In this document: in pieces, positions 42,922 through 43,574 of the stretch
Numbering within the stretch: the stretch's first letter is position 1
How the letters are laid out: the number at the start of each line of letters is the position of its first letter
Origin: Zanthoxylum bungeanum
Lineage: Eukaryota; Streptophyta; Magnoliopsida; Sapindales; Rutaceae
DNA: 64,000 bases
Assembly (NCBI GenBank): GCA_019454045.1
Contig: SKCR01025339.1
Location: 62,001-126,000, forward strand
Reading direction: 5' to 3'
Notes under the pieces: generated by a model
Told to the model about the DNA's origin: nothing
The model's database searches: none
The model's input: only the letters and a program-made list of their open reading frames with translations
Translations under genes and position numbers: made by a program

Positions 42922-43574
42922 TTAAAGGTTAAGATCCAGATTTATTCGACGCCTCTTACCACGATCATCCTCAGACCAATTTATCTTTGAAAGGATAGGG
43001 TCAACTTGTGGTTCATAGGCTATGAGTTGGTCTATTAGATCTGGAGCAGACCTGGCAATAAAAATGAATTCTTTCATAGGTTTTGACACGAACCCATTTC
43101 TCAGGGCATCATCAAGAAACACACAAAGAAAATCATAAAATCCATCAATGTTGAGCAATCCAATTGGTTTCTGATGTATGTTCATGTTCGCCCAAGATAG
43201 TACTATAAAAATTTCCTCCAATGTACCCAAGCCACCTGGCAAAGCAATAAAAGCATCAGAACGATTAATCATTTCTACCAGTTGTTCAGACATACCTGGG
43301 ACGATTTGTTCCTCTCCGTTTGATGGTTCAATAAGATTTGCCTACGCCAAGGGTTTTGGGATGATTCCCAAAACATGACTACCTTCTTCCTGTATGGCCT
43401 TTGAAACGATCCCATTAGTCCAAGATTGCCTCCGCCATATACTAAGTGTATATTTCTTGCAGCTAAGACGCGACCCAATTCTTGTGCTGCTTCTACGTAT
43501 TGTGGTTTAGTACCAACACTACTACCGCAAAACACACAGATATTTTCAACTCGTCTTCTTGAAGTGGCTTCCAT
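42922..43574 (-). pseudogene. Captured LONELY GUY-like cytokinin riboside monophosphate phosphoribohydrolase
   Basis: LOG enzymes release active cytokinin bases from their riboside 5'-monophosphates. The minus strand from 43574 reads ICVFCGSSVGT, then LVYGGGNLGLMG. After a one-base deletion near 43410 it continues SKAIQEEGSHVLGIIPKPLA, a stop, GMSEQLVEMINRSDAFIALP, the signature PGGLGTLEE (family PGGxGTxxE), then NIHQKPIGLLNIDGFYDF, and ends RRRINLDLNL. About 215 codons match family length without an intron, whereas host LOG genes have several. It therefore looks like a cDNA captured by the Athila element. It lies at the env-like position in element orientation. One frameshift and one in-frame stop disable this copy. 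Confidence 0.88.

What the first reader, a model, noticed from the sequence alone, without database searches (positions are those of the whole stretch)
42922..43574. LOG-like cytokinin-activating gene carried by an Athila retrotransposon
Conserved LOG blocks (CVFCGSS, VYGGGNLGLMG, PGGLGTLEE, KPIGLLNIDGFY) lie in one intronless ~650-bp stretch, in element orientation, inside an Athila unit bounded by LTRs and a TCATA duplication. It occupies the place of the env-like gene. A mobile element carrying a hormone-activating enzyme could alter host cytokinin, or could have spread a LOG-like subfamily through the genome. This copy has one frameshift and one stop.
Basis: partly seen in the sequence, partly recalled or inferred. 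Interest (0 to 1): 0.88.

Follow-up and report, generated by a model that had tools for sequence, protein, structure and literature searches.

The report
Jumping gene carrying cytokinin-enzyme relative
A broken plant retrotransposon in this window carries a broken copy of a LOG-type (cytokinin-activating enzyme family) gene directly beside a second broken gene that resembles plant-virus nucleic-acid-binding (silencing-suppressor) proteins; full-length relatives of each occur in sequences from several plants, and most of the listed LOG-type relatives share a C-terminal tail, absent from Arabidopsis LOG3, that is predicted to recruit the host's TOPLESS gene-repression machinery.

Summary
A LOG-family gene (PF03641, 1e-25) lies intronless at 43574-42922 (minus), in element orientation, between an integrase-like remnant and the 3' LTR of an LTR retrotransposon bounded by TG...CA and a TCATA duplication (39521-50914). 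It has one frame break and one stop. The element copy is broken too: most of pol appears missing, and its outer part looks like a truncated tandem unit.

(1) The neighbouring gene (44359-43815, one frame break) belongs to a 182-aa family (670 database hits) that matches Pfam Carla_C4 and Viral_NABP, the flexivirus nucleic-acid-binding proteins. (2) Listed LOG-like relatives group apart from Arabidopsis LOG3/LOG8; 89 of 120 end in a basic plus LxLxL (EAR-type) tail that LOG3 lacks. (3) Glu122 (116 of 118) and usually Arg99 (98 of 110) persist, but adenine-site Lys100 is replaced in 106 of 110.

LOG (YgdH) domains in Gypsy elements of Citrus and Populus are already in print, so capture itself is not new. 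The pairing with a viral-type protein and the EAR tail did not turn up in the papers searched. Best reading: a retained two-gene accessory module, likely acting on the host; its action is untested.

The parts
39516..39520 (.). target-site duplication TCATA, left copy
   Evidence: letters; host repeat continuity
50915..50919 (.). target-site duplication TCATA, right copy
   Evidence: letters
39521..41334 (-). 3' LTR (full)
   Evidence: self-alignment; K2P 0.034 to the inner LTR (computed with the start taken one base wider)
41335..42921 (-). 3' region between LOG-like gene and 3' LTR; no ORF of 120 aa or more listed there
   Evidence: repeated at about 49064-50698; ORF list
42922..43413 (-). 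LOG-like gene, second piece (residues 55-217; 42922-42924 is the stop codon); holds PGGLGTLEE, one in-frame stop near 43343, C-terminal tail GKRRRINLDLNL
   Evidence: Pfam PF03641 1.1e-25 on 42922-43293; tblastn with P0003; frames
43398..43574 (-). LOG-like gene, first piece (residues 1-59), other frame
   Evidence: tblastn; Pfam SLOG cluster4 3.6e-05, 23.9 bits, below its cut-off of 26.3
43815..44057 (-). viral-NABP-like gene, second piece (residues 102-182), other frame
   Evidence: tblastn with P0121, 92.6% identity; no Pfam match over a cut-off
44060..44359 (-). viral-NABP-like gene, first piece (residues 1-100) with basic stretch and Cys cluster
   Evidence: Pfam Carla_C4 5e-06, 26.8 bits against 20.9; Viral_NABP 18.4 bits, below its cut-off of 23; tblastn 87% to P0121
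44501..44857 (-). open stretch read as integrase C-terminal remnant
   Evidence: frame reading; only a sub-threshold Integrase_p58_C hit, E 0.062
44858..45835 (-). protease-like region; RT, RNase H and integrase core appear missing after it
   Evidence: Asp_protease_2 0.00097, 20.2 bits, below its cut-off of 24.3; no RT hit in the pieces scanned
46347..47153 (-). gag
   Evidence: Retrotrans_gag 4.6e-23
47238..47255 (-). primer-binding-site-like stretch TGGCGCCGTTGCCGGGGA, 6 nt inside the inner LTR end
   Evidence: letters; match to a tRNA-Asp end is recalled, not computed
47262..49063 (-). inner full LTR (5' LTR of the gag-to-LOG unit)
49064..50698 (-). second copy of the 3' region (truncated unit)
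   Evidence: K2P 0.031 to 41336-42928
50695..50914 (-). about 220 nt of LTR start, outer end of the insertion

Best explanation
This is a decayed, likely Athila-type, LTR retrotransposon copy whose env position holds two broken accessory genes, a flexivirus-NABP-like one and a LOG-family one, and the pair likely is a retained module with which intact relatives of the element would manipulate their host. Shown: the element bounds, the order gag - protease-like - integrase-like remnant - NABP-like - LOG-like - 3' LTR, both broken frames, full-length relatives of both proteins, the basic/LxLxL tail in most listed LOG-like relatives, and retention of the PGGxGTxEE motif. Inferred: an ancestral element captured a spliced LOG mRNA; the LOG-like product is kept by selection; it folds as a LOG dimer; its tail would bring TOPLESS-type co-repressors or take it to them; some nucleotide phosphoribohydrolase activity, with changed base recognition because Lys100 is gone, would remain in the intact copies; the NABP-like protein would bind nucleic acid and dampen silencing of the element or alter host transcription. 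This window copy would do none of this.
For: LOG: PF03641 1.1e-25; nearest solved relatives At2g37210 and At5g11950, named AtLOG3 and AtLOG8 in PMC4979012; the ten best hits are 73-86% identical, four of them 217 aa long; AlphaFold model of P0003 matches 2a33_B at TM 0.94 by target length, 0.75 by query length. No intron, element orientation. The 66 hits of 200 aa or more and the window piece group apart from AtLOG3/8 and a bacterial LOG, support 96/91. Tail: LxLxL in the last 10 residues of 89 of 120 listed hits; Leu columns change 2, 2 and 1 times on the tree against 5 and 12 for the interleaved ones, body median 5; AtLOG3 ends RIGYSSEE. Constraint: 75 columns invariant among three outside LOGs have mean entropy 0.69 against 1.38 for 110 others, p 5e-10. 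NABP-like: Carla_C4 in 15 of 15 and Viral_NABP in 14 of 15 aligned members at E up to 1; 670 hits at E up to 0.01. Linkage elsewhere: the longest contig of P0144 (NABP-like) and of P0089 (LOG-like) is 4511 bases, both JGI. Print: YgdH/LOG domain in Gypsy consensuses of Citrus and Populus (PMC9289625, passages).
Against: Only one DNA copy of the module was in hand; genome-wide copies and dN/dS could not be measured (genome search did not complete). That the listed relatives are element-borne is inferred. The 4511-base coincidence is circumstantial: about 0.04 expected by chance by my rough estimate, not computed in a call. Lys100 is replaced in 106 of 110 relatives; Arg99 is Gln in the window and in 11 of 110, so classical LOG activity may be lost. 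An EAR motif alone is not enough for TOPLESS binding, and Leu-to-Ile or Phe changes abolish it in HaRxL21 (PMC7446885, passages); some tails carry such changes. 28% of body columns change as little as the Leu columns. The NABP-like fold model is poor (pLDDT 50) and its viral fold matches all have E above 0.2. The Arabidopsis control is two proteins, and the tail end of AtLOG8 was not seen. The hits were chosen by likeness to the window piece, so their grouping is partly expected.
Confidence: 0.6

Rival explanations
1. Passive cargo: LOG and NABP-like genes were captured by chance, replicate with the element and have no function for it.
For: The window copy is broken in both genes; gene capture by plant transposons is reported, usually in one or few copies per element family (PMC7264820, part 1 of 3 read); Arg99 became Gln at least twice on the tree; 16 of 120 hits lack the tail, mostly proteins cut short.
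Against: 217 aa is the common full length among listed LOG-like hits and 182 aa that of 72 of 141 fetched NABP-like ones; active-site motif, Cys cluster and tail are kept across divergent relatives; constraint differs by site; LOG domains recur in consensuses of Citrus elements.
Confidence: 0.2
2. A classical cytokinin-activating LOG: intact copies would raise active cytokinin where the element is expressed, favouring dividing cells; the tail is incidental.
For: Glu122 in 116 of 118, Glu121 in 113 of 118, Arg99 in 98 of 110.
Against: Lys100, part of the adenine site in CgLOG (PMC4979012, passages), is replaced in 106 of 110; the tail's Leu columns are among the slower ones.
Confidence: 0.2
3. 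A host LOG gene or processed pseudogene that landed in, or was flanked by, separate LTR insertions.
For: Host LOG proteins are the nearest solved relatives.
Against: One target duplication flanks the whole unit and the host repeat is continuous outside it; same orientation as gag; the NABP-like gene lies between the integrase-like remnant and LOG; the 3' region starts right after the LOG stop and is repeated beside the other LTR.
Confidence: 0.04

Closest known systems
Plant LONELY GUY proteins (AtLOG3 2a33, AtLOG8 1ydh)
   Same: Fold, PGGxGTxEE motif, similar length; P0003 is 40-46% identical to them in the fold alignment
   Different: No intron and element-borne (host introns are recalled); Lys100 replaced; basic plus LxLxL tail that AtLOG3 lacks
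YgdH/LOG-domain Gypsy elements of Citrus and Populus (PMC9289625, citing Steinbauerova 2011)
   Same: Gypsy elements carrying a LOG-family domain; perhaps the same element group (inference)
   Different: The passages read describe no neighbouring viral-type gene and no tail; the 2011 paper was not held and may say more
Flexivirus nucleic-acid-binding / cysteine-rich proteins (carlavirus p12 and kin)
   Same: Pfam Carla_C4 and Viral_NABP matches, basic stretch followed by a Cys cluster
   Different: 182 aa, with a conserved C-terminal part only partly covered by those models (matches end at or before residue 121); the window copy is carried by a retroelement
Athila elements with env-like genes
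   Different: No PF03078 (ATHILA ORF-1) hit in the window ORFs scanned; RT apparently missing so lineage untested
EAR-motif pathogen effectors (HaRxL21; PMC7446885, passages)
   Same: C-terminal LxLxL
   Different: Here on a LOG-fold protein encoded by a retrotransposon; TOPLESS binding untested

Membership tests
LOG (PF03641) | profile match over the family cut-off | tested here: met
   90.8 bits against 27
LOG (PF03641) | PGGxGTxxE motif | tested here: met
   PGGLGTLEE in window; Glu122 in 116 of 118 relatives with a residue there
LOG (PF03641) | catalytic Arg99 | tested here: not met
   window has Gln; 98 of 110 relatives keep Arg
LOG (PF03641) | adenine-site Lys100 | tested here: not met
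   window Leu; 106 of 110 relatives not Lys
LOG (PF03641) | LOG fold | tested here: met
   model of full-length relative P0003, TM 0.94 by target length to 2a33_B; the window copy itself was not modelled
LOG (PF03641) | phosphoribohydrolase activity | not testable with these tools
   needs a protein assay
LTR retrotransposon | LTR pair, TG...CA, target duplication, gag | tested here: met
Athila lineage | RT/RNase H/integrase phylogeny | not testable with these tools
   these domains were not found in the copy
Athila lineage | ATHILA ORF-1 domain PF03078 (in 16% of Athila, PMC6317226) | tested here: not met
   no hit in the window ORFs scanned; not required of all Athila
Athila lineage | tRNA-Asp-type primer site | tested here: inconclusive
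   TGGCGCCGTTGCCGGGGA lies after the inner LTR; the tRNA match, and its being typical of Athila, are recalled
Flexivirus NABP | Carla_C4 / Viral_NABP profile | tested here: met
   window piece Carla_C4 26.8 bits against 20.9, Viral_NABP 18.4 against 23, so below; 15 and 14 of 15 relatives match at E up to 1
Flexivirus NABP | basic stretch plus Cys cluster | tested here: met
   C-x2-C-x3-5-C-x3-C in 107 of 141 fetched members, a basic run before the Cys pair in 111 of 141
Flexivirus NABP | silencing suppression or nucleic-acid binding | not tested
   known for viral members from PMC12172455 passages
EAR-motif repressor | LxLxL near the C-terminus | tested here: met
   window tail INLDLNL; 89 of 120 hits in the last 10 residues; 1 of 141 NABP-like proteins in the last 15 as control
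EAR-motif repressor | TOPLESS binding | not testable with these tools
   needs a binding assay

The most novel reading that the evidence does not exclude
A lineage of plant env-position retrotransposons carries a two-protein host-manipulation cassette: a silencing-suppressor-like protein shared with flexiviruses, and a LOG enzyme reshaped by evolution into an EAR-tagged TOPLESS recruiter with altered base recognition, so that the element rewires hormone and repressor pathways of its host the way a pathogen effector does.
Probability: 0.2. Interest if true: 0.92.

Novelty: new variant of a known kind. Interest (0 to 1): 0.7.

Why it matters
If the module is under selection, a plant retrotransposon lineage uses effector-like proteins, joining hormone metabolism, co-repressor recruitment and silencing defence. 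It gives a concrete answer to what can sit in the env position of such elements, links a virus protein family known for silencing suppression with a retroelement protein family, and warns that some 'LOG' gene models in plant genomes (for example the Populus trichocarpa model named LOGL10, P0062, which bears the tail) may be transposon genes.

Tried and rejected
Whole-genome copy count and dN/dS: the genome search 'own' answered nothing in nine identical tries. DNA of relatives: IMG/VR scans gave no related locus for the NABP-like family and 24 loci for LOG, first-listed 39% identity over 108 residues, the others 27-59% over shorter or similar stretches, none followed up. Fold of the NABP-like protein: model pLDDT 50, no viral match below E 0.2; 18 of the 39 listed are named as nucleic-acid-binding, RNA-binding or silencing-suppressor proteins of plant flexiviruses, suggestive only. 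Separate-LTR or processed-pseudogene reading: rejected from the single target duplication and the arrangement. The simple tandem reading of the outer part is not settled: over the roughly 210-220 nt of LTR start, the outer piece differs by K2P 0.082 from the 3' LTR and 0.065 from the inner LTR, against 0.049 between those two. Rows dropped: the trees used the 66 of 120 hits with 200 aa or more, plus three solved LOGs and the window piece, 70 rows; tail counts on the tree left out the three solved LOGs and P0060, P0077, P0035, P0048, P0084, leaving 62; the entropy test used 27 of 63 after thinning at 90%, P0060, P0077 and P0053 left out. P0053 stands outside the remaining 64 in the quick tree but inside them in the careful one. 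The 15 'variant' tails include at least one truncated protein (P0045). Not found in print: an NABP-like gene in a retrotransposon - search 27 (38 papers, 20 listed) and one search (one paper) gave no such title; an EAR tail on LOG - search 50 listed three papers; all seen as titles and abstract starts only. LOG in retrotransposons was sought. Steinbauerova 2011 was not held.

Full report
What is there. The insertion spans 39521-50914 and is flanked by TCATA. A related host repeat at 13483-14902 aligns to 39013-39519 and resumes at 50915, so the whole unit most simply entered as one piece. On the minus strand the order is: about 220 nt of LTR start (50914-50695), a copy of the 3' region (50698-49064), a full LTR (49063-47262), a primer-site-like stretch, gag (Retrotrans_gag 4.6e-23), a protease-like region (below cut-off), an apparent gap where RT, RNase H and the integrase core should be, an integrase-like remnant (E 0.062 only), an NABP-like gene, the LOG-like gene, the 3' region and a full LTR (41334-39521). 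The two full LTRs differ by K2P 0.034 and the two 3' regions by 0.031; the outer LTR piece differs more, 0.082 and 0.065. A tandem element with the first unit mostly deleted is my reading, not a settled one.

The LOG-like gene. The 123-aa ORF hits PF03641 at 1.1e-25. tblastn with P0003 aligns residues 1-59 and 55-217 in two frames with no intron, and shows one stop. A database search with the 139-aa C-terminal piece gave 2804 proteins at E up to 0.001, of which 120 were listed; full-length relatives of 217 aa include P0003, P0005, P0008 and P0010. Named hits in the listing are Populus alba, P. trichocarpa, P. nigra, P. x canadensis and Reevesia pubescens; some clusters hold many members (205 in P0071, unnamed). 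The model of P0003 has mean pLDDT 82.7, with 204-217 below 50, and matches 2a33.

Active site. CgLOG has Arg99 and Glu122 as proposed catalytic residues, and Met96, Lys100 and Glu121 around adenine; changing the residues involved to alanine nearly abolished activity, Ser19 excepted (PMC4979012, passages). Over the 120 hits, counting those with a residue at the place: Glu122 in 116 of 118, Glu121 in 113 of 118, Arg99 in 98 of 110, Lys100 in 4 of 110. The window has Gln at 99 and Leu at 100. On the tree Lys100 changes at least twice and Arg99 to Gln at least twice.

The tail. 89 of 120 hits have LxLxL in their last 10 residues, 15 a looser hydrophobic version, 16 neither, mostly proteins cut short. 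It follows a basic cluster; the window tail reads GKRRRINLDLNL. On the tree the Leu columns change 2, 2 and 1 times, the interleaved ones 5 and 12; the median of 200 body columns is 5 and 28% of them change twice or less. So the Leu columns are in the slower part but not unique. The profile alignments to AtLOG3 and AtLOG8 stop before the tail, and AtLOG3 ends in RIGYSSEE; the end of AtLOG8 was not seen. LxLxL is a form of the EAR motif by which plant repressors, and the C-terminus of the effector HaRxL21, bind TOPLESS; the motif alone is not sufficient (PMC7446885, passages). TOPLESS binding here is a prediction.

Tree. 70 rows: the 66 hits and the window piece group apart from AtLOG3/AtLOG8 and a bacterial LOG, support 96/91 (bootstrap/SH-aLRT; 93 by SH-aLRT in the quick tree); the window groups with P0003, P0005, P0006 and P0008 at 100/99. 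The hits were picked by likeness to the window, and host sampling is two Arabidopsis proteins, so the point of capture is not fixed. Columns invariant among the three outside LOGs are also slower inside the group (entropy 0.69 against 1.38, p 5e-10), which unconstrained decay would be unlikely to give; columns are not fully independent, so the p value is a guide.

The neighbour. The ORF at 44392-44006 hit Carla_C4 at 5.2e-06. Its first search gave 39 relatives at E up to 0.01, and a profile search gave 670, 120 listed, with Xanthoceras sorbifolium, Populus, Acer yangbiense and Rhamnella rubrinervis among the named and one cluster of 566 members. In the alignment of 15, Carla_C4 is matched by 15 and Viral_NABP by 14 at E up to 1, best 2e-07 and 1.1e-08. 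The window holds it in two frames, 44359-44060 and 44057-43815. 107 of 141 fetched members keep the full Cys pattern; several of those without it are fragments. Viral members are silencing suppressors, and one (CVB p12) is also described as a transcription factor causing hyperplasia (PMC12172455, passages). Which way the protein moved between viruses and elements is open.

Linkage. Only the window shows both genes on one DNA. The longest contigs of P0144 and P0089 are both JGI contigs of 4511 bases, which would fit one contig; I could not fetch it.

What is known. PMC9289625 (passages) reports YgdH domains, the LOG family domain, in Gypsy consensuses of two Citrus species and, without their filter, P. 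trichocarpa, citing Steinbauerova 2011. PMC6317226 (passages) counted extra ORFs only from 250 codons up, so both proteins here fall below its limit. The capture is therefore known; the pairing, the tail and the Lys100 loss were not seen in the searches made, which do not cover most subscription journals.

Judgement. Observation confirmed; interpretation right on capture and place, uncertain on enzyme function. The most likely working view is a retained accessory module with an EAR-tagged LOG-fold protein and a nucleic-acid-binding partner; the steps from sequence to host effect are all untested.

Noticed in passing
46519-46625: Rfam snoR71 (RF00097, 48.1 bits) on the plus strand, antisense to gag; the family may rest on retroelement gag sequence (guess).
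   Followed up: no
49064-50914: Apparent truncated tandem unit: 3' region copy plus LTR start outside the inner LTR, within one pair of target duplications.
   Followed up: partly
53739-54907 and 59104-60317: Further stretches of 77-82% identity to the element's LTRs, the first inverted.
   Followed up: no
12658-14673 and 19940-21958: A 2-kb repeat pair at 96% identity belonging to the repeat family into which the element inserted.
   Followed up: no
31249-32830 and 33696-35273: Nearby direct duplication of about 1.6 kb at 81% identity.
   Followed up: no
556-807: Tandem array of a 53-base unit, 4.8 copies, 94% matches.
   Followed up: no
41899-42124: 125-base unit repeated 1.8 times in the 3' region; a similar pair lies at 49569-49894 in the second copy.
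   Followed up: no
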